64,000 bases of DNA from positions 62,001 to 126,000 of the forward strand of contig JAHBWU010000002.1 in the NCBI GenBank assembly GCA_019636835.1, in the 5' to 3' direction. Each line of letters begins with the position of its first letter. Position 1 is the first letter of the stretch. A program made the translations under genes and the position numbers. Below the pieces are notes generated by a model that had not been told where the DNA came from, made no database searches, and saw only the letters and a list, made by a program, of their open reading frames with translations. This DNA comes from Nitrospira sp. (GTDB lineage Bacteria; Nitrospirota; Nitrospiria; Nitrospirales; Nitrospiraceae). Of the stretch, positions 17,703 to 27,031 are shown one piece after another.

Positions 17703-17786
17703 GAAAGTCTTTACCGTGGTAAGATGTCCGACGGAGAGAGGCCCTGTGCAAGAAACCACCGGCGAGCAGCAGTTGTCTGTGGAACC

Positions 17787-19223
17787 ATGAGCAAGAGCGT
17801 CCTTCAAAGAAGAGCTGAAATCCACGGCCTGGCGACGGCAATTCTGCTGCCGTCTGTCGGGGTCTTCGGCGGTCCGATCGGATCGCAGGTCGACGACGTG
17901 GGGCCTCTGACGAACGTCGTGGGGATCGGGCTCTTTCAACGGACCGTGCTCACCTTGCAACGGGCGGGGATTCGCCAATTAATCGTCCTTTCCGGTTCCG
18001 AGGAGGAACAGCTGAAACAGGCGCTCGGTAAAGGGCCGCGCGTCACGATTCCCGTCCGATGGATGCCGATCCGTGAGTTTCCTCTCGACGATCCTCGGAC
18101 ATGGGAAGCCTTGGCGGCCGAAGTGCACGGCTTTGCGTTGGTCACGAGCGTCAATAGTGTGTTCTCTCGAGGGTTGATCGAACGGTTGCGGCGTGATGTA
18201 CAGGACGGTCAGGCCATCCTAGTCTCTCAAGCCTCACAAAGGCAGGTCGATCAGCTCATGGTGCAGGGCGTGCGATCGAAAGCTCTGTCCAGTCGCCCGG
18301 CGACCTTCGCCCCCCCTCGTTTTGACGATCCGGCCTTGCGTGTCGCCGAGCTGGTGGTCGTGCCGGCAAGTCTGATGAGCACCGCCAATCAAGCGGCGAG
18401 CGAAAAGGGGAGCCCTCCGATCCGGCAGTGGCTTGAGCGGGCGTCGGCGGATGGTCGAGTGCGTGTCGTCTCGGCCGAAGAGAAGCGGGGCGATTGGTAT
18501 CAACCCGTCCGAACCCTGTCTGACGTCCAAACAGCCGAAAAGAAATTGTTCAATTCGCTCAAGGGGGAATTTGAAGGGTTTGTCGATCGGTATTTCAATC
18601 GGAAGGTCTCTCGTTGGTTTACGCGCCTGTTTCTTGCCATGGGGCTGTCGCCAAATTCCATCACGATCCTTGCCGGACTCATCGGTCTGGTTGCTGCGGC
18701 GGGATTTGGGATAGGCACGTACAGCGCCGGTATTGTGGCAGCTCTCTTGTTTCAATTGGCGGCCGTGATTGATTGCTGTGACGGCGAAGTCGCGCGGTTG
18801 ACCTTTACCGAGTCGCCCTTTGGGGCCTGGTTCGATATCGTCTTGGACAACATCGTGCATATGGCGATTTTTGGGGGCATCGCCGTGGGACTCTATACGA
18901 CGCACATCGGACAAGCGGACGACTGGGTTCCTCTTGCGCTGGGCGTCGCTGCGGTGTTCGGCAACGGCCTCTCATTCTTGCTTGTCGAAAAGGCGCAGAA
19001 GATTAAAACGGCGAGTGGTTGGAGAACTCCTGCACATGCGGCCTGGGCGGATGTCATGCTGAAAAATGTCGCCAACCGTGATTTCTCAGCGGCCTTACTG
19101 GGCTTTGCGCTGTTCGATCAACTCTATTGGTTTCTACTCTTTGCAGCAGCCGGCTCCTTGCTGTTTGCCGGTGCCATGGTCTGGGTCATCCGCTCATCTG
19201 CAATCTCATCTCCTCGGCCATAA
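17787..19223 (+). CDS. CDP-alcohol phosphatidyltransferase with N-terminal nucleotidyltransferase-like domain
   Basis: A 478-aa protein. Residues about 1-245 look like a degenerate nucleotidyltransferase (Rossmann-like strands, but no GxGxR loop). Residues about 265-478 form an integral membrane CDP-alcohol phosphotransferase with the complete motif DxxDGxxAR-x8-GxxxDxxxD (Asp329, Asp332, Asp350 and Asp354). Such enzymes move a head group from a CMP/CDP donor to a lipid alcohol. With an upstream CMP-aminoethylphosphonate synthase, the expected product is a phosphonolipid such as diacylglycerol-aminoethylphosphonate. The layout also resembles bifunctional inositol-phosphate enzymes, so an inositol lipid is the alternative. 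The ATG at 17787 is preferred over an in-frame ATG 63 bases upstream. Confidence 0.8.
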   Translation: MSKSVLQRRAEIHGLATAILLPSVGVFGGPIGSQVDDVGPLTNVVGIGLFQRTVLTLQRAGIRQLIVLSGSEEEQLKQALGKGPRVTIPVRWMPIREFPLDDPRTWEALAAEVHGFALVTSVNSVFSRGLIERLRRDVQDGQAILVSQASQRQVDQLMVQGVRSKALSSRPATFAPPRFDDPALRVAELVVVPASLMSTANQAASEKGSPPIRQWLERASADGRVRVVSAEEKRGDWYQPVRTLSDVQTAEKKLFNSLKGEFEGFVDRYFNRKVSRWFTRLFLAMGLSPNSITILAGLIGLVAAAGFGIGTYSAGIVAALLFQLAAVIDCCDGEVARLTFTESPFGAWFDIVLDNIVHMAIFGGIAVGLYTTHIGQADDWVPLALGVAAVFGNGLSFLLVEKAQKIKTASGWRTPAHAAWADVMLKNVANRDFSAALLGFALFDQLYWFLLFAAAGSLLFAGAMVWVIRSSAISSPRP

Positions 19224-19248
19224 ATGCCGCGTTCGCCATCCGACTAAC

Positions 19249-20256
19249 GTGTTGCGCTATATCCTATTAGCCCTAGGCCTTGTCGTTCTAAGCCTTCTTG
19301 TCTGGCATATCGGCCCCGCCAACATCTATGAGGCCGCTACACGACTGGGTCCGACAGCCTTGCTCGCCCTCCTGATTCCATCCATCATCATGTATTCCGT
19401 TGAAGCCTATGGGTGGAAAGTCGTGTTGGGGCAAGCGGCACAAAGGATTCCGTTTTGGCGACTGCTGACGATTCGGAGCGCCGGCGAAGTGGTGAATATG
19501 ACCACTCCGACCGCCTACCTGGGGGGCGAACCGCTGAAGGTCTATCTGCTCAACAAATATGACGTTCCCATAGCGGAGGGGGCCGCTTCAGTTGTGATTG
19601 CGAAGACGACCATGACCATCGCGGAAGTGTTCTATATCCTCACGGGAATCGCCCTGGCCTTTTGGATTCTGGGTGTCGGAAGCTCGGCAGGGCAGACGAT
19701 CACGGCGGCACTGTTGAGTGTCGGACTGTTGGTGTGTTCAATCGCGGGGTTTGTGTTTATCCAGCAGCGTGGACTCTTTGCATCGATTCTGTCCTTGGTC
19801 AAGAAATTGGGCTTACGAATTCGGTCTCTGGAAGCGCAGGAAGAGCACCTGCGCTCGATCGACCAAACGATCCGGAATTTTTACAGCCACCATCAGAAGG
19901 CCTTTTATGCGTCGTTGGTGGTGTATTTGTTGGGCTGGATGGCCGAATCGATGGAAGTCTTCGGGATCATCTATTTGCTCGGCGGGTCGGTGAGTGTGTT
20001 GTCTGCCCTCTCTATAGGAGCGCTCGCGGTGTTTATCAAGGGCGGATCCTTCTTCATCCCCGGCAGCCTGGGCGCCCAAGATGCCGGCAATCTTCTGTTG
20101 CTCCAAGCGTTCGGCTACAGTGACGTGACGGGGATCACTTTCGCGCTGTTGCGACGATTCCGTGAGCTCGTCTGGATCGGTATCGGGTTGTTGTGTTTGG
20201 CGACGGTCGGAAAAGGCAGGATACCCCAGGATCAAGAGATAGAAATTCCTTCCTGA
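19249..20256 (+). CDS. Flippase-like integral membrane protein (LPG synthase TM / YbhN family)
   Basis: A 335-aa protein with about eight hydrophobic helices and the family motifs TIRSAGEVVNMTTPTAYLGGEPLK and GSFFIPGSLGAQDAGNLLL. The family (TIGR00374-like) includes the membrane half of lysyl-phosphatidylglycerol synthase and HpnL-type proteins, which are linked to lipid flipping. It follows the CDP-alcohol phosphotransferase by 25 bases, so movement of the phosphonolipid across the membrane is a reasonable inference. The GTG at 19249 is chosen because the open frame further upstream is only a shadow of the previous gene. It overlaps the convergent PilZ gene by 25 bases. Confidence 0.78.
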   Translation: MLRYILLALGLVVLSLLVWHIGPANIYEAATRLGPTALLALLIPSIIMYSVEAYGWKVVLGQAAQRIPFWRLLTIRSAGEVVNMTTPTAYLGGEPLKVYLLNKYDVPIAEGAASVVIAKTTMTIAEVFYILTGIALAFWILGVGSSAGQTITAALLSVGLLVCSIAGFVFIQQRGLFASILSLVKKLGLRIRSLEAQEEHLRSIDQTIRNFYSHHQKAFYASLVVYLLGWMAESMEVFGIIYLLGGSVSVLSALSIGALAVFIKGGSFFIPGSLGAQDAGNLLLLQAFGYSDVTGITFALLRRFRELVWIGIGLLCLATVGKGRIPQDQEIEIPS

Positions 20257-20696
20257 GTGATCGTTCGGAGCCGTTCGACCATCCGGTCCCACACGAATCC
20301 GTGGAGCCGAAAATCCGCCGCCCGCTCCACCTTGTGAAACTGAAGCCCCATCCGATTCCCTTGGACCCATCGGACCTCGGCCTCTTCAACCGGGAGTGAC
20401 TGTACTTGATCCGGCAGTATCAGCCGTACGCGGAGAGTGGTCCGCTGCGGGGCGACACAGGTACACTCGATCGCGCAGCCGAACACCGTGAGGTTCATCA
20501 CCCTCCCTTCTGCGATCGTTTCCGCGTCCGAAAACATCACGGGGTACTGCACGGCGAGGGGGACTCGATAGTGATGCCGAAAATAAGGACGTGTGGATTC
20601 CACAGTAGCCCAGTGTAGTCGGCCTTCCGTGGCAGAATGAATCCCCCTTTCGCGGGGACGAAACGCAATCCTGTTCACGGTGAAGGCGGTGTCCAC
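20232..20696 (-). CDS. PilZ-domain protein
   Basis: A 154-aa protein with an N-terminal extension of about 37 residues before a PilZ domain. The cyclic-di-GMP motifs are RHHYR (RxxxR) and NLTVFG, where the usual serine is Thr. Its GTG start follows the stop codon of the upstream PilZ gene directly, so the two are probably translationally coupled, and no separate ribosome binding site is seen. A shorter start at the GTG just before ESTRPYF is possible. The 3' end overlaps the convergent flippase-like gene by 25 bases. Confidence 0.75.
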   Translation of the reverse strand: MDTAFTVNRIAFRPRERGIHSATEGRLHWATVESTRPYFRHHYRVPLAVQYPVMFSDAETIAEGRVMNLTVFGCAIECTCVAPQRTTLRVRLILPDQVQSLPVEEAEVRWVQGNRMGLQFHKVERAADFRLHGFVWDRMVERLRTITQEGISIS

Positions 20697-21095
20697 TCAG
20701 GCAGAGTAGTGCTTATTGAGGTGTTCGCGCTGGAATTTTAAGATATGTCTTATCAGCAGTTCCCGATCCCGATTGGCCATCCTGACGAACCGGCCATGCA
20801 GGCGATACGTGTTGAGTGGGTAGGGGATGGGATCAACGCGCAGCACTTCGAGGAAAGACTTAAAGAGTACCTGGCCGGGAAGGAGCAGGGTGCAGGAGAG
20901 AATTACGTTCACCTCGAAAGTCTGGTTGAGTGTAACGCCGATGCCCCCGCCGCTGATGTTGACGGACCGCTGGACGAGTGTTGCCTCAGCCGTGTCGTTC
21001 TCGGCCTGAAGACAGATGGGCAAGGGGACGGTGATGCGATAAAACTCGCGGCGATCTGCAGGAGACGGCTGTGGGGCCTGGGTATCTGGCGGCAT
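20697..21095 (-). CDS. Single-domain PilZ protein
   Basis: A 132-aa PilZ protein with RREFYR (RxxxR) at about residues 15-20 and NISGGG (NxSxxG) at about 46-51. The DRREFYRI start of the domain resembles PilZ proteins that act on motility or surface functions, but no flagellar or pilus gene is adjacent. It is the first gene of a two-gene minus-strand unit with the PilZ gene at 20232, its stop codon touching the next start. Two different cyclic-di-GMP receptors would therefore be made together. Confidence 0.85.
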   Translation of the reverse strand: MPPDTQAPQPSPADRREFYRITVPLPICLQAENDTAEATLVQRSVNISGGGIGVTLNQTFEVNVILSCTLLLPGQVLFKSFLEVLRVDPIPYPLNTYRLHGRFVRMANRDRELLIRHILKFQREHLNKHYSA

Positions 21096-21368: not shown

Positions 21369-21596
21369 ATGATCAAGAAGCTGACCAAGCATGGCAATAG
21401 TCTCGCCCTCGTGATTGATCGGGGTGTGCTCGATCTGCTGAACATTGACGCCGAGACGCCGCTCAACATCAAGACAGATGGGAAGTGCCTCATCGTGATG
21501 CCTGCACAGGACGTCGTCCGTCGAAAAAAGTTCCGCGCGGCCTTAGCCAAGGTGAACCGGCAATATGGTCCAGCATTAAAGAAGCTTGCGGAATAA
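21369..21596 (+). CDS. AbrB/MazE-type antitoxin
   Basis: A 75-aa protein with an N-terminal swapped-hairpin DNA-binding domain (KKLTKHGNSLALVIDRGVLD, then LNIDAETPLNIKTDG) and a basic C-terminal tail that should wrap the toxin. The start has a strong AGGAGGTGGAGG site. It sits three bases upstream of a Doc toxin gene, in the normal antitoxin-first order, and should repress its own promoter. The 273 bases upstream hold no convincing gene. Confidence 0.85.
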   Translation: MIKKLTKHGNSLALVIDRGVLDLLNIDAETPLNIKTDGKCLIVMPAQDVVRRKKFRAALAKVNRQYGPALKKLAE

Positions 21597-21599
21597 GTA

Positions 21600-21986
21600 G
21601 TGGAACCGCTGTTTCTTACTTTGGAAGAAGTCCTGGAGATTCACCGTGATGAAATCGAGCGGTACGGTGGGACGCTAGGAGTCCGTGATAATGGGTTGCT
21701 GGAGTCTGCGGTTGCCGCTCCTCAGGCTGGGTTCGGCGGACATTATTTGCACAGTAACTTGTATGAGATGGCAGCAGCTTATCTCTTTCATCTTGTGCAG
21801 AATCATCCGTTCTTAGACGGAAACAAACGCGTGGGGGCAGCTGCGGCTCTCGTCTTTCTGACCATGAATGGTGTCGAAACAAAGATGACGAATCAAGCGA
21901 TCGTCGACATGGTACTAGCGGTGGCGAAAGGGAAGATGGATAAACCGACCATCGCAGAATTCTTCCGCAAGCATTCCCGCCAGTAG
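21600..21986 (+). CDS. doc: Doc (death-on-curing) family toxin, Fic fold
   Basis: A 128-aa Fic-fold protein. The catalytic motif HPFLDGNKR (His69 to Arg77) matches the Doc/Fic consensus HxFx(D/N)GNKR. The N-terminal LTLEEVLEIHRDEIERYGG and RDNGLLESAVAAPQ segments are typical of the Doc branch. Doc from phage P1 phosphorylates elongation factor Tu and so stops translation. The GTG start lies three bases after the antitoxin stop. All catalytic residues are present, so it should be active. The antitoxin is AbrB-like, unlike the P1 system, where Doc is paired with Phd. Confidence 0.88.
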   Translation: MEPLFLTLEEVLEIHRDEIERYGGTLGVRDNGLLESAVAAPQAGFGGHYLHSNLYEMAAAYLFHLVQNHPFLDGNKRVGAAAALVFLTMNGVETKMTNQAIVDMVLAVAKGKMDKPTIAEFFRKHSRQ

Positions 21987-22086: not shown

Positions 22087-22734
22087 TTAGTTGCCTGTAG
22101 TCATTTCCTGATACCAGCGTCGGAGGTGCTTCAGACTGGGCAATCGTGTCTTTCCGTTGAACAGGTAGTTGCTGAGTATGCCGTAGAGATTGTAATCGAC
22201 GAACAACGGGCGATCGGTCAGAAGAAACGGTGAGGTTGCCAACATGCTGTCGATCGGCTTCAAGAGTTCCGCAAACTGAGTGCACAGATACCGTCGATGG
22301 GTGGTCCATTCTCGGACGCATCCTCTCCCGAATTTCCGCTCCTTGTGGCGAATGAGCATCGTCCGTTCGATGAGGGGGCGGGTTGGAATCACATACGTAT
22401 CGTTCACTTTGAAGCCCACCGATTCCAGATCGTTCTCGATATAGCGTGAAACAATTAGTTGTAGCCCATCGAAGTTTTTGGGAAACAGGTTAAGCCGATA
22501 CCGCCGATCCACGTAACGCGCAACCTCCTGCCCGAAGTCCGTTAGGTCACAGATGGCGTGCCTCCCGTCGATAAGGCAGGGAACCGTATGACCCTGTCCC
22601 TTCGTCGCTTTAATGATCGGAGTTCGATCATGGTAGGCGATGTTGTGGAGCCGAAACGGAATATGATGACGTGTCAGGATGTGCCTGATGGTGATGCAGA
22701 AGGGGGACCAAGGAAATTGGATGAGGGTGAGCAT
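22087..22734 (-). CDS. Glutathione S-transferase-like protein
   Basis: A 215-aa protein with an N-terminal thioredoxin-fold GST domain (FPWSPFCITIRHIL, then the cis-proline segment HTVPCLID at about residues 49-56) and an all-helical C-terminal domain. A Ser and a Cys lie in the WSPFC segment where thiol chemistry occurs. Substrate is unknown; such proteins conjugate or reduce small electrophiles, or serve as stress proteins. It faces the Doc toxin gene convergently with a 100-base gap and has no evident operon partner. Confidence 0.75.
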   Translation of the reverse strand: MLTLIQFPWSPFCITIRHILTRHHIPFRLHNIAYHDRTPIIKATKGQGHTVPCLIDGRHAICDLTDFGQEVARYVDRRYRLNLFPKNFDGLQLIVSRYIENDLESVGFKVNDTYVIPTRPLIERTMLIRHKERKFGRGCVREWTTHRRYLCTQFAELLKPIDSMLATSPFLLTDRPLFVDYNLYGILSNYLFNGKTRLPSLKHLRRWYQEMTTGN

Positions 22735-23024
22735 GGAACTTTTATGAAGGAAGCGAAGCGAAACCGCAAGATCGCAAGAAAGTAACTTTACCTATGCTAC
22801 TTTTCTATCCGATGGCGGTTCGAATCAGCAAGTGTAAGATGATGAGAGATGAGCACTGTTGGCGGTAATGGGGGGACACAACTGGCCCTATTGCTTGGGC
22901 TTGATTGCTCATATATATTCCTTGGCGCTTCATAGCATTACCCTGTGAAATTAATTCTTATCTATCTACGGACTAAGCAAAAGTCACACGATACAATTTC
23001 CTCACTATGCAGGGATAAAGTATA

Positions 23025-24395
23025 GTGCCACAAAGAGAACTGAGAGACCCAATTCATGGGTTCATTAACCGGGAGGATGTCGAAGAAGAGATTATCAATT
23101 CCCCTGTCTTCCAACGCCTAAGGAAGATTAGGCAACTTGCTCTCGCTAGTCTTGTTTATCCAGGAGCAGTCCACACGAGATTTGATCATTCAATCGGGGC
23201 TATGCATGTTGCCGGATTGATCTCAGATGCAGTTCGATTAGAGCCTGAGGAGAAAAGATTAGTGCGCCTTGCGGCTTTACTGCATGACATTGGACATGGG
23301 CCATTCTCGCATGTTTCAGAGCCTGTCCTTGAAAAGTATTTCGATCGTGAAAAGGTCAACATTGAGGGCAAGGTACAGATCCATGAAAAATTGACCGAGG
23401 CGATCATTCGTGAGGATGAAGTGCTTGGTCATGGTTTGAGTCCGCGAGACCGTGAGAGAATTATCGGCATCCTTAACGGAACTTATGGGGATTCTGTTCT
23501 CAAGCATATAGTCTCTGGCCCTCTCGATGCGGACAAACAGGCCTATCTGTTGAGAGATAGTTACTTCTGTGGAGTGAAGTACGGGGTGTTTGATCTTTCT
23601 AGGCTGTCCTCAACACTCGCCGTCCAACGCGATTCCGATGATAGAGATCTGGCAATTAATGAAGATGGCGTCCATGCGCTTGAGCAGTTCGTCCTGGCAA
23701 AGTACTACATGACAACGCAGGTGTATAGACACAAAGTAAGACTAATAACTGATTCTATGATTGGTCGTGCGCTTGATCTTGGGATCAGGGAAGATGGTAT
23801 AGAGTGGCTCCGAAAGGTTTATACCTACGATGGATCGAGGGATTATGTGCGTGAATATAAAACTTGGACTGATGAGCGTCTTACCAATGAGATCCTTTCC
23901 CCACGCACACCTGATGGATACGCAAAGTCAATATTTCAGAACCTAACTCAGCGACAGCTACACAAGAGAATCGCTACCTATAGAATTCAAGAGTTCGATG
24001 ATCCTATCGCCAGAAAAGGGCTCTCTGAGTTGAGTTCATCGGATAAGATAGAACTGGAAAAAAGAATCGGGACCTATCTTTCTGCTGATCACAATCTGGT
24101 TATTGTGAATACATTTTCAATCAAATCGGTTCGAGAACAAGCAAGGAATTCCGAGGCATCGATTATCGTTATGGGACCTGATGTCGAAAAGCCAGCCATA
24201 TTTGAAGCAAAATCTGCGCTCTTTCGTTCAATAGATGAGGCAGTGCAGGAAAAGTATATTGAGGTGTATGCTCCTATAAAATACATAGATGATAAACAGA
24301 AGAAGAAACTGAAGTCTCAGTATCATGGTGAGATTCGATCTATTTTGAACGATTTCATGCAGCCGGGCCCATTTGAAAAGGAGGGAGCGACATGA
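23025..24395 (+). CDS. SAMHD1-like HD-domain phosphohydrolase, candidate dNTPase
   Basis: A 456-aa protein of the COG1078 group. The HD metal site is complete: His55 in HTRFDHS, His87-Asp88 in LLHDIGHGPFSH and Asp168 in GPLDADKQAYLLRDS. The RLRKIRQL segment and PGAVHTRFDHS are typical of dNTP triphosphohydrolases such as SAMHD1 and Bacillus YwfO. It should hydrolyse dNTPs to nucleosides and triphosphate. The GTG start is the only reasonable one. The gene is visibly richer in A and T than its surroundings, suggesting acquisition. Its last four bases overlap the next gene, so the two proteins are made together. Confidence 0.82.
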   Translation: MPQRELRDPIHGFINREDVEEEIINSPVFQRLRKIRQLALASLVYPGAVHTRFDHSIGAMHVAGLISDAVRLEPEEKRLVRLAALLHDIGHGPFSHVSEPVLEKYFDREKVNIEGKVQIHEKLTEAIIREDEVLGHGLSPRDRERIIGILNGTYGDSVLKHIVSGPLDADKQAYLLRDSYFCGVKYGVFDLSRLSSTLAVQRDSDDRDLAINEDGVHALEQFVLAKYYMTTQVYRHKVRLITDSMIGRALDLGIREDGIEWLRKVYTYDGSRDYVREYKTWTDERLTNEILSPRTPDGYAKSIFQNLTQRQLHKRIATYRIQEFDDPIARKGLSELSSSDKIELEKRIGTYLSADHNLVIVNTFSIKSVREQARNSEASIIVMGPDVEKPAIFEAKSALFRSIDEAVQEKYIEVYAPIKYIDDKQKKKLKSQYHGEIRSILNDFMQPGPFEKEGAT

Positions 24396-24949
24396 ACTCC
24401 AAAGACATAGTTTTGCTTGTTATGGATGAATATGGAGGTTCAATGTCTGGGAAAACCCTTCTTCAGAAAGTTTGCTATTTTGCTGAAGTTGCTCTCAACA
24501 TGGGTGTGCCTTTCAAGGCACATCACTATGGCCCATATTCACCAACAATCGAAGAGTCGGTGGGTGAACTAAAGGAGCTTGGTTTTATTGAAGAACATAC
24601 AGTTGGTTTTGGAGTTTCCAATCCCTCTGGATTTGGAGAATTGCGCAGATATGACTACCGTCTAACAGATGATGGCCGAAAGGTCGTTGAAGATTTAAAG
24701 AGTAAGAAACGAGTGGAAGCCAAAAGTATTAGTGGTCTGGTTGAACGAATAAAAAAAAGCGGTAATCCTGATTACTTCGAGTTATCGATTGCTGCCAAAA
24801 GTTACTTTATTTTAAGAAAACAGAATAAGCCTATGACAAATTCTGAGATCGAGAAGGAAGCTCAGAAGCTTGGATGGCCTTTGCAGGAAGGAAGCGTTCA
24901 AAAAGCGATCCACCTACTGCAAGGGCTCAAGCTTGTTACGAGTAATTAA
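24392..24949 (+). CDS. YwgA-like protein paired with the HD phosphohydrolase
   Basis: A 185-aa protein of the YwgA-like group. The N-terminal domain reads SGKTLLQKVCYFAE, then FKAHHYGPYSPTIEESVGELKELGFI, followed by a YRLTDDGRK strand-turn, a winged-helix-like pattern. The C-terminal half is helical, ending in a second possible winged helix. From memory, a ywgA-type gene also neighbours the HD gene ywfO in Bacillus, which suggests a functional pair. It overlaps the HD gene by four bases (ATGA) and shares its low G+C. The role is unknown; a regulator or partner of the phosphohydrolase is likely. Confidence 0.65.
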   Translation: MNSKDIVLLVMDEYGGSMSGKTLLQKVCYFAEVALNMGVPFKAHHYGPYSPTIEESVGELKELGFIEEHTVGFGVSNPSGFGELRRYDYRLTDDGRKVVEDLKSKKRVEAKSISGLVERIKKSGNPDYFELSIAAKSYFILRKQNKPMTNSEIEKEAQKLGWPLQEGSVQKAIHLLQGLKLVTSN

Positions 24950-25024
24950 AGGGTTGCTTCCCGAGAGGCTGTTCCACCTCAAGCTGTGACCTTTCTTCGT
25001 TTCTTTTCTTGCTAGGATATCCAC

Positions 25025-27031
25025 ATGAACGCGGTGATGAATCTGCTCTGGGTCCTGCTTGCTATCCTTGGCACTGTGGCCTTTGCCCATGTTACGGGCG
25101 CCGTTAATCCTCATGAAAAAGTAAACGGTCTCTGGCTCGTCGTGGCGGCGGCCTGCATCTATGTGCTGGCTTATCGGTTCTATGGAAGATGGCTGGCCAA
25201 GCGTGTCGTTGAACTGAACAACCAGCATGTGACGCCGGCGGTGCGGTTGAATGACGGCGTCAATTTTCATCCCACGAATAAGGTCGTCCTCTTCGGCCAC
25301 CACTTCGCGGCGATTGCCGGGGCCGGGCCCTTGCTTGGGCCGGTCTTGGCTGCGCAATTCGGATTCATGCCGGGGTTTCTCTGGCTGGTGATTGGGGCAG
25401 TGCTGGCCGGGGCGGTGCAGGATTTCATCATCCTGGTGGCTTCCATGAGGCGCAATGGGCGTTCGCTCCCTGAGATTGCGCACGATGAATTGGGCTCCAT
25501 TACCGGCACGGCGACGGCGGTGGCGGTCCTCTTTATTGTCGTCGTCGCGTTGGCGGGTTTGGGGTTCGCCGTTGTGAATGCCCTTTACCACAATGCTTGG
25601 GGCACGTTTACGATCGCCATGACGATTCCCATCGGCTTCTTCATGGGCTTCTATCTCCAGCGGTTTCGCCCAGGCGCGATTGCGGAGGTGTCGGTGTTCG
25701 GGATCGTTCTATTACTGGCAGCAGTGTTCTTCGGCCGCGTGGTGGCCCAATCATCCTATGCGTGGCTCTTCGAATTCGATAAACCGGCGCTCGTCTGGCT
25801 CTTGGCCGGTTATGGTTTTCTCGCCTCAGTGTTGCCGGGATGGATGTTGTTGGTGCCGCGTGGCTATCTCTCGACCTTCATGAAGCTCGGGGTCGTCCTT
25901 CTGCTCGGGTTCGGCGTGGTCCTCATGGCGCCGACGATCGAGATGCCGCGCGTGACGACCTTCGCCAATGGCGGCGGGCCCATTATTCCGGGCACGCTCT
26001 TCCCCTTTCTCTTCATTACGATTGCCTGCGGGGCCATCTCAGGCTTCCACTCGTTGGTCTCATCCGGCACGACGCCCAAGATGATCGAGCAGGAGTCACA
26101 GGCGGTGGTGGGGTATGCCGCGATGCTGCTGGAAAGTTTCGTCGGTGTCATGGCGTTGATTGCGGCCTCGGTGCTGATTCCTGGCGATTATCTGGCGATT
26201 AATACGACGTTGAGTTTGGATGCGCTGGTGGCCATGGGTTTTGCACCGTCTCGAATTGCTGAATTGTCACAGATGGTCGAAGTGGATGTGGCAGGTCGCC
26301 CCGGCGGGGCCGTGTCGTTGGCGGTGGGGATGGCGTCCATCTTTTCGGCGTTGCCTGGTATGTCTGGCTGGATGGCCTATTGGTATCAATTTGCGCTGGT
26401 GTTCGAGGCGTTGTTTATTCTCACGACGATCGATACGGGCACGCGCGTGGCGCGGTATCTCATTCAAGAAATGGCCGGGCGGGTTTATGCGCCCTTTCGC
26501 CGAATGAACTGGGTGCCGGGCGTTATGTTGAGCAGTGGTCTGGTCGTGGGAGCCTGGGCCTATTTGATCGGAACAGGGAGCATTTCGACGATTTGGCCGA
26601 TGTTCGGTGCGGCGAATCAACTGCTGGGGATGCTGGCGCTCTGCATTGGGACGACGGTGTTGATCAAGATGTGGAAGTCACCCTATCTCTGGGTGACGGC
26701 GCTGCCGATGCTTTTCGTGGGCATGATTACATTGACCGGATCTTATGAAATGTTTTGGATGTTCTTGAAGAAAGCCGGAACCTTGGCGGCGGGACAGGCC
26801 TTTGCTCTCTACCTGGACGCGGTGTTGGTGGCACTGGTCGCGGTGCTGGGCTTGATTGTCTTGAGCGACAGTGTCAGGCAGTGGTATGGCTACGTAGTCT
26901 TGAAGAAGCCGTTTACGTCAAGTGAAGTCGTCGTGACGGCAGGCGGCGGGACTGTTGGGCGAATGCAAACTGCGATTCATCGTGATGAAGAGAAGGGGTT
27001 TAAACTACCGCACGGAACAGGGTGCTGTTAG
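25025..27031 (+). CDS. cstA: CstA family carbon starvation transporter
   Basis: A 668-aa membrane protein with about 16 to 18 hydrophobic segments. The family blocks are clear: FHPTNKVVLFGHHFAAIAGAGPLLGP near residues 80-105, GAVQDFIILVASMRRNGRSLPEIA near 136-158 and FHSLVSSGTTPKM near 341. CstA and its relatives import pyruvate and possibly peptides, often under carbon limitation. It starts at an ATG with AGGA seven bases upstream. The gene returns to the G+C-rich composition of the chromosome after the A/T-rich pair upstream. No regulator or small accessory (YbdD-like) gene is adjacent. An inverted-repeat element begins right after its stop. Confidence 0.93.
   Translation: MNAVMNLLWVLLAILGTVAFAHVTGAVNPHEKVNGLWLVVAAACIYVLAYRFYGRWLAKRVVELNNQHVTPAVRLNDGVNFHPTNKVVLFGHHFAAIAGAGPLLGPVLAAQFGFMPGFLWLVIGAVLAGAVQDFIILVASMRRNGRSLPEIAHDELGSITGTATAVAVLFIVVVALAGLGFAVVNALYHNAWGTFTIAMTIPIGFFMGFYLQRFRPGAIAEVSVFGIVLLLAAVFFGRVVAQSSYAWLFEFDKPALVWLLAGYGFLASVLPGWMLLVPRGYLSTFMKLGVVLLLGFGVVLMAPTIEMPRVTTFANGGGPIIPGTLFPFLFITIACGAISGFHSLVSSGTTPKMIEQESQAVVGYAAMLLESFVGVMALIAASVLIPGDYLAINTTLSLDALVAMGFAPSRIAELSQMVEVDVAGRPGGAVSLAVGMASIFSALPGMSGWMAYWYQFALVFEALFILTTIDTGTRVARYLIQEMAGRVYAPFRRMNWVPGVMLSSGLVVGAWAYLIGTGSISTIWPMFGAANQLLGMLALCIGTTVLIKMWKSPYLWVTALPMLFVGMITLTGSYEMFWMFLKKAGTLAAGQAFALYLDAVLVALVAVLGLIVLSDSVRQWYGYVVLKKPFTSSEVVVTAGGGTVGRMQTAIHRDEEKGFKLPHGTGCC

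What the first reader, a model, noticed from the sequence alone, without database searches (positions are those of the whole stretch)
23025..24949. A/T-rich SAMHD1-like HD phosphohydrolase plus YwgA-like gene, possible dNTP-depletion defence
The two genes overlap by four bases, both are clearly richer in A and T than the genes around them, and they lie next to a toxin-antitoxin pair. The HD site is complete. dGTPase-type enzymes that drain dNTPs are an established anti-phage mechanism, and HD/YwgA-type neighbours also occur in Bacillus as I recall. Inference: a transferred two-gene system in which the YwgA-like protein senses or controls the phosphohydrolase.
Basis: partly seen in the sequence, partly recalled or inferred. 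Interest (0 to 1): 0.6.

Follow-up and report, generated by a model that had tools for sequence, protein, structure and literature searches.

The report
Mobile dNTPase with DarG-fold partner
A pair of overlapping genes that hops between unrelated bacteria, and sits here in a spot where close relatives keep other phage-defence genes, joins a SAMHD1-like enzyme expected to destroy DNA building blocks to a small partner built like the domain that silences the DarT toxin, and so looks like an undescribed virus-defence module.

Summary
Window 23025-24395 encodes a complete SAMHD1/EF1143-type HD phosphohydrolase and 24392-24949 a YwgA-like protein, overlapping by ATGA. They are the most A/T-rich stretch of the window. 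The pair lies in a ~2.2 kb insert between conserved genes (GST-like / cstA). It is absent from the same place in all 20 same-genus relatives checked, one of which has an empty site. Others carry different cargo there: a type II-A retron, DndB, OLD/AriA-like and other AAA ATPases, SIR2+HATPase, TcmP. The site is a defence-type hotspot; the neighbouring Doc toxin-antitoxin pair is a separate layer. Relatives (37-51% identity) occur in Acidobacteria, Desulfobacterota, Zixibacteria, Cloacimonadota, LCP-89, Armatimonadota and two viral contigs. Wherever the downstream DNA is held, a YwgA-like gene follows directly, and in 14/14 contigs the pair is the GC-poorest stretch of its length. The partner is not a generic regulator: by sequence profile and predicted fold it matches the DarT-binding C-terminal domain of antitoxin DarG (PDB 7yk3). 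I infer a defence module in which the partner restrains a dNTP-depleting effector. It resembles Clover in logic but with a protein regulator instead of a nucleotide-signal synthetase. dNTPase activity, inhibition and phage protection were not tested.

The parts
23025..24395 (+). SAMHD1/EF1143-type HD phosphohydrolase (456 aa, GTG start), predicted dNTP triphosphohydrolase effector
   Evidence: Pfam HD + HD_assoc_2; profile vs PDB 2o6i (EF1143) 2.5e-89, 2hek 1.1e-84, 9mr6 2.2e-60, SAMHD1 about 1e-57
23187..23189 (+). H55, metal ligand (SAMHD1 H167)
   Evidence: invariant in the family; register
23283..23288 (+). H87-D88, HD motif (SAMHD1 H206-D207)
23310..23321 (+). H96...E99, catalytic HE dyad (SAMHD1 H215/D218 positions)
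23532..23534 (+). D170, metal ligand (SAMHD1 D311)
24379..24384 (+). AGGAGG ribosome-binding site of the second gene, inside the HD gene
   Evidence: sequence
24392..24395 (+). ATGA overlap of stop and start codons (translational coupling)
   Evidence: spacing -35 to +20 in 20 of 20 pairs
24392..24949 (+). YwgA-like protein (185 aa) with the fold of the DarG toxin-binding C-terminal domain; predicted regulator/inhibitor of the HD enzyme
   Evidence: profile vs 7yk3_B 1.1e-6; AF2 pLDDT 91; Foldseek 7yk3_B 3.8e-6, TM 0.66; hhalign vs DarG CTD E 1.6e-8
24527..24541 (+). YGPYS motif (residues 46-50), shared in form with DarG CTD; Y46, G47, P48, S50 invariant in the family
22829..24994 (.). inserted stretch: flank homology with same-genus relatives stops at about 22770-22828 and resumes at about 24995-25010
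   Evidence: empty site in L128 (about 250 bp between the same flanks)
22087..22734 (-). conserved left flank: GST/glutaredoxin-like gene
25025..27031 (+). conserved right flank: CstA-type carbon starvation protein, hotspot border (name from own knowledge of the family)
21369..21986 (+). antitoxin (TIGR02609-like) + Doc toxin; neighbour only, not part of the unit
   Evidence: antitoxin and/or Doc found without the HD pair in L131, L134, L135, L136

Best explanation
The pair is a horizontally mobile two-gene anti-phage module. The HD protein is a SAMHD1/EF1143-type dNTP triphosphohydrolase effector. The YwgA-like protein, a stand-alone DarG-CTD-fold domain made by coupled translation, binds it and holds it inactive. 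Infection (a phage protein that captures the partner, or changed nucleotide levels) frees the enzyme, which drains dNTPs and stops phage DNA synthesis. Shown here: mobility, co-inheritance as one unit, intact active site, family assignment, partner fold, and location in a hotspot with defence-type cargo. Inferred: dNTP hydrolysis, direct binding, inhibition rather than activation, the trigger, and phage protection.
For: Pair in 1 of 175 family genomes, while a partnerless 38%-identical HD paralogue is near-universal. Empty and alternatively filled sites in the genus with retron II-A, DndB, OLD/AriA-like AAA, SIR2+HATPase, TcmP. Fourteen relatives carry a clear YwgA-like gene right after the HD gene and two a divergent one; the other four HD genes run into or near a contig end. 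Two viral contigs carry full pairs, one beside a phage integrase and repressor. Lowest-GC stretch in 14/14 contigs. Coupled spacing in 20/20 and mirror correlation r 0.94. HD proteins in clades outside the window's clade also have a partner next door. Partner = DarG CTD by three methods and by NCBIfam in independent subfamilies; DarG CTD blocks DarT by binding it (PMC11481870). A dNTPase held back by a partner gene is an established defence logic (Clover, PMC12265719). Neighbours elsewhere: Lit-like, PLD helicase, DrmD/HmaA-like helicase.
Against: No experiment links this clade to defence or dNTP hydrolysis. A divergent HD/YwgA pair sits among apparently core genes in Priestia, so the pair can be housekeeping. 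The partner is near-neutral in charge, so DNA-mimicry as in DarG is not indicated. The fused AF2 model (pTM 0.72) does not establish a complex. Several loci (e.g. L057, L058) show no obvious defence neighbours.
Confidence: 0.55

Rival explanations
1. The YwgA-like protein is a required activator or infection sensor of the HD enzyme rather than an inhibitor; the pair is still a defence system.
For: Effector-first gene order with coupled translation fits co-assembly of a complex; Foldseek also finds PadR-like winged helices, far more weakly.
Against: The only strong fold and sequence relative is an inhibitory toxin-binding domain.
Confidence: 0.2
2. The pair is a mobile toxin-antitoxin addiction module whose main role is its own maintenance, with little phage defence.
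For: DarG-type antitoxin fold, mobility, prophage location.
Against: Chromosomal insertion in a site otherwise holding defence genes; no YwgA-like match on plasmids in two searches.
Confidence: 0.1
3. It is an ordinary dNTP-pool housekeeping enzyme with a regulator, gained by chance.
For: Core-like position of the Priestia pair; the near-universal HD paralogue of the family.
Against: Rare within the family, low GC in every contig tested, hotspot placement; HD tree places the window with an Acidobacterium, away from other Nitrospirota pairs.
Confidence: 0.1
4. The HD enzyme acts on another substrate (modified phage nucleotides, ribonucleotide signals or single-stranded nucleic acid) under partner control.
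For: HD enzymes are substrate-diverse (own knowledge); only active-site residues were compared.
Against: Closest solved relatives and conserved Q37, R52, K171, Y174, D178 match dNTP-handling SAMHD1 positions.
Confidence: 0.05

Closest known systems
Clover (CloA dGTPase + CloB nucleotidyltransferase), PMC12265719
   Same: two-gene unit with a SAMHD1-superfamily HD enzyme carrying HD motif and HE dyad; in Clover the second gene restrains the first
   Different: partner here is a DarG-CTD-fold protein, not a nucleotidyltransferase; 9mr6, probably CloA (my inference), is only a distant homologue
DarTG toxin-antitoxin / defence system (DarG C-terminal domain, PDB 7yk3)
   Same: partner shares the fold and QK...YGPYS-type motif of the DarT-binding domain
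   Different: no DarT, no macro or NADAR domain; effector is an HD phosphohydrolase
Anti-phage dGTPases (NCBIfam NF041026, PADLOC dGTPase)
   Same: HD phosphohydrolase expected to consume dNTPs
   Different: 22.7 bits against a cut-off of 400; different branch of the HD superfamily; has a partner gene
EF1143 (Enterococcus) and YwfO/YwgA-type pairs of Bacillaceae
   Same: HD + HD_assoc_2 architecture; in Priestia a YwgA-like gene follows
   Different: Priestia HD is 26% identical and sits in a core-like context, not as mobile cargo
Panacea/SocA antitoxin domain (PF13274)
   Same: possible shared N-terminal QK...GP motif
   Different: no Pfam hit; profile match only 36-70% probability over about 50 residues

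Membership tests
SAMHD1/EF1143-type HD phosphohydrolases | HD domain plus HD-associated region, complete metal site and HE dyad | tested here: met
SAMHD1/EF1143-type HD phosphohydrolases | dNTP triphosphohydrolase activity | not testable with these tools
   needs enzymology
Clover | CloA-type HD dNTPase effector | tested here: inconclusive
   homologous to 9mr6 (2.2e-60 by profile), but not shown to be an orthologue of CloA
Clover | second gene is a Pol-beta nucleotidyltransferase (CloB) | tested here: not met
   second gene has the DarG-CTD fold
DarTG | DarT ADP-ribosyltransferase next door | tested here: not met
   neighbour is an HD protein
DarTG | DarG macro/NADAR domain fused to the CTD | tested here: not met
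   185 aa, CTD-like region only; 20.9 bits vs cut-off 250 for NF048014
DarTG | C-terminal toxin-binding domain fold | tested here: met
   7yk3_B: Foldseek 3.8e-6, TM 0.66; profile 1.1e-6
Anti-phage dGTPase (NF041026) | score over the curated cut-off | tested here: not met
   22.7 vs 400 bits
Panacea antitoxins (PF13274) | match to the SocA_Panacea model | tested here: not met
   no hit at E <= 0.1; none in the whole own genome; weak N-terminal profile similarity
Type II toxin-antitoxin system | effector toxic alone, partner neutralises by binding | not testable with these tools
   no experiment; fused AF2 model inconclusive
Mobile anti-phage defence system | patchy occurrence and location in defence hotspots or prophages | tested here: met
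Mobile anti-phage defence system | protects against phage | not testable with these tools
   needs plaque assays

The most novel reading that the evidence does not exclude
The DarG C-terminal domain is one member of a wide family of neutraliser domains (YwgA family) that swap enzymatic effectors: SAMHD1-like dNTPases most often among the stand-alone ones, and also DarT and possibly TIR proteins. HD/YwgA pairs would then be a new class of toxin-antitoxin-like nucleotide-depletion immune systems, and some phages keep an orphan YwgA-like protein (L153, HD reduced to a remnant) as counter-defence.
Probability: 0.35. Interest if true: 0.8.

Novelty: new variant of a known kind. Interest (0 to 1): 0.63.

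Why it matters
dNTP-depleting HD enzymes are known antiviral effectors in animals and bacteria, but how bacteria keep them from harming their own cell is explained mainly for Clover. A widespread SAMHD1-like enzyme locked to a DarG-type domain would give a second, protein-based solution. It would connect two immune families not linked in the papers found here, suggest a function for the uncharacterised YwgA family, and point to how the trigger might be found (what removes the partner).

Tried and rejected
Single-protein scans of viral contigs found nothing; alignment-based scans did. The Doc toxin-antitoxin pair as part of the system: rejected, because it occurs without the HD pair in relatives. 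Panacea membership: only weak N-terminal similarity. DNA-mimicry by charge: the partner is near neutral. A fused HD-YwgA chain (L052 read through its stop codon) for complex prediction: pTM 0.72 with good local confidence is compatible with independent domains, so inconclusive; a first alignment for it (A4) misplaced the YwgA rows and was replaced (A5). RNA element in the insert: none in Rfam. Terminal repeats of the insert: only short imperfect matches, likely chance. Promoter scan: fewer hits than in shuffles. Taxon-wide counts around the other hosts could not be made: re-centring needs a genome handle. A first automatic search of Panacea genes missed most of them and was redone.

Full report
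WHAT IS THERE. Two overlapping genes lie at 23025-24395 (HD, 456 aa) and 24392-24949 (185 aa), with an ATGA overlap and AGGAGG upstream of the second start. Their GC3 is 0.43 and 0.36, against 0.56-0.72 in the nine genes around them, and no other stretch of that length in the window is as GC-poor (0/582). The HD protein matches Pfam HD and HD_assoc_2. A profile of the family finds EF1143 (2o6i) at 2.5e-89, 2hek at 1.1e-84, 9mr6 at 2.2e-60 and SAMHD1 at about 1e-57. H55, H87, D88, D170, the H96/E99 dyad, and H91, H120, Q37, R52, K171, Y174 and D178 are invariant in the 15 aligned family members. The SAMHD1 register is read; the role of the HE dyad is taken from the Clover paper (PMC12265719). 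That 2o6i is EF1143 and 9mr6 probably CloA is my own knowledge or inference.

MOBILITY. The genome is a MAG, 88% complete. In 175 genomes of the same family only this one has a close HD homologue. The listed matches in the rest are at best about 40% identical over roughly the first 290 residues (higher only over shorter stretches), which is a near-universal paralogue also present here (L002), with no YwgA-like gene beside it. Some second matches in that search were not listed. A YwgA profile gives 15 of 175 family genomes; all but the window are weak (E 5e-8 or worse), mostly DarG-length ORFs. The flanking genes (17724-21095, the GST-like gene, cstA, yajQ) are largely conserved, mostly at 75-95%, in the relatives that keep the synteny, but the pair is missing from all 20 checked. 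Homology stops at about 22770-22828 and resumes at about 24995-25010. In L128 the same flanks are only about 250 bp apart, an empty site.

A HOTSPOT. In other relatives the same interval holds different, mostly low-GC cargo: a type II-A retron with its NDT partner (L123; RT 9.7e-106, NDT 4.3e-55), DndB (L126; 1.6e-110), an OLD/AriA-like AAA ATPase with a partner (L127), another AAA protein (L133), SIR2 plus HATPase (L134), a DUF3800 protein hitting PDC-M04A (L135), DUF5131 and TcmP (L140), and a D12 methyltransferase with ParB-like and unknown genes (L141). The AAA and SIR2 matches are to broad families and are weaker evidence than the retron, DndB and TcmP. The Doc toxin-antitoxin genes occur in several relatives without the pair, so they are a separate layer.

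RELATIVES. One scan of 84,980 genomes gave 20 relatives. Fourteen carry a clear YwgA-like gene directly after the HD gene (E 1e-26 to 1e-47), two more carry a divergent one, and the other four HD genes run into or near the end of their contig. The clear pairs are in Acidobacteria, Cloacimonadota, Zixibacteria, Desulfobacterota or Deltaproteobacteria, LCP-89 and Armatimonadota. In 14 of 14 contigs tested (window included) the pair is the lowest-GC stretch of its length; in L044 the difference is small (0.014). Two viral contigs carry full pairs; L143 has it immediately after a phage integrase and near a CI-like repressor. Stop-to-start spacing is -35 to +20 in 20 of 20 pairs, and HD and YwgA distances correlate at r = 0.94, which shows co-inheritance and by itself does not prove contact. 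In the HD tree the window groups with an Acidobacterium, while other Nitrospirota pairs fall in another clade. Within the phylum, six of thirteen other YwgA/DarG-type loci examined (L157, L158, L159, L160, L162, L166) have an HD gene beside or near the YwgA-like gene.

WHAT THE PARTNER IS. The YwgA-like family profile finds one natural solved protein, DarG in the DarT-DarG complex 7yk3 (1.1e-6); the remaining hits are weak (E 0.02 or worse) and mostly designed proteins. hhalign against DarG C-terminal domains from the same phylum gives 95% and 1.6e-8, against 0.2% for a control. The AlphaFold model (pLDDT 91, pTM 0.86) matches 7yk3_B best (3.8e-6, TM 0.66); the next hits are PadR winged helices about a thousand-fold weaker. 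Partners from other HD clades, including Priestia, hit only DarG in NCBIfam (best 8.6e-13 among HD partners) and always far under the cut-off, so they are relatives and not DarG itself. The DarG C-terminal domain is reported to occlude the DarT active site by direct binding while mimicking ssDNA (PMC11481870). The window partner is near neutral (+2), so charge-based mimicry is not indicated.

MECHANISM. The best-supported reading is a restrained effector: the partner binds and silences a dNTP triphosphohydrolase, and infection releases it. The enzyme family, active site, mobility, co-inheritance and partner fold are shown. Activity, contact, direction of control, trigger and protection are inferred. 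A fused-chain model was inconclusive. The main counter-argument is that a divergent HD/YwgA pair sits among core-looking genes in Priestia.

NOVELTY. It is not Clover (no nucleotidyltransferase partner), not DarTG (no DarT, no macro domain), not a family anti-phage dGTPase (22.7 of 400 bits) and not Panacea. The PADLOC 2023 library gave no full-length match for either protein. Literature searches in the held open-access library found no description of HD/YwgA pairs, but many journals and preprints are not held. I therefore call it a new variant of a known kind: nucleotide depletion with a new type of regulator.

Noticed in passing
window 22735-25024 and L123-L142: The interval between a GST-like gene and cstA is a cargo hotspot in this genus: empty or nearly so in some genomes, and retron II-A, DndB, AAA/OLD-like, SIR2+HATPase, TcmP or methyltransferase cargo in others.
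   Followed up: partly
L123, L127, L132 just upstream of cstA: Partial 5' duplicates of cstA (46-81 aa) lie 0.8-1.0 kb before the intact gene, beside the cargo, as if insertions leave cstA scars.
   Followed up: no
L153 5927-6534 (81.8 kb viral contig with thymidylate synthase and terminase): An intact YwgA-like gene follows only a remnant of the HD N-terminus (about 42 aligned residues) in a patchwork of gene fragments: a possible captured inhibitor used by a phage, or a decayed or chimeric region.
   Followed up: partly
L033 1399-2981 (same gene pair as L155): A YwgA/DarG-CTD-like gene is followed by a TIR-domain gene instead of an HD gene, hinting at effector exchange.
   Followed up: partly
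L150 1-6207: A truncated HD gene of this family (102 aa ORF) lies beside type I restriction-modification genes; the HsdM match is confirmed, HsdS and HsdR are read from sequence only.
   Followed up: no
L044 4490-5763; L048 590-3280; L049 14143-16935: Neighbours of the pair in other phyla: SLFN_AlbA_2 and a Lit-like protein; a PLD helicase (full-length PADLOC match); a DrmD/HmaA/BrxH-like helicase.
   Followed up: yes
L156 1483-2230: A YwgA-like gene preceded by a short ORF that looks like a leftover HD C-terminus, near a cytosine methyltransferase fragment (both read by eye).
   Followed up: no
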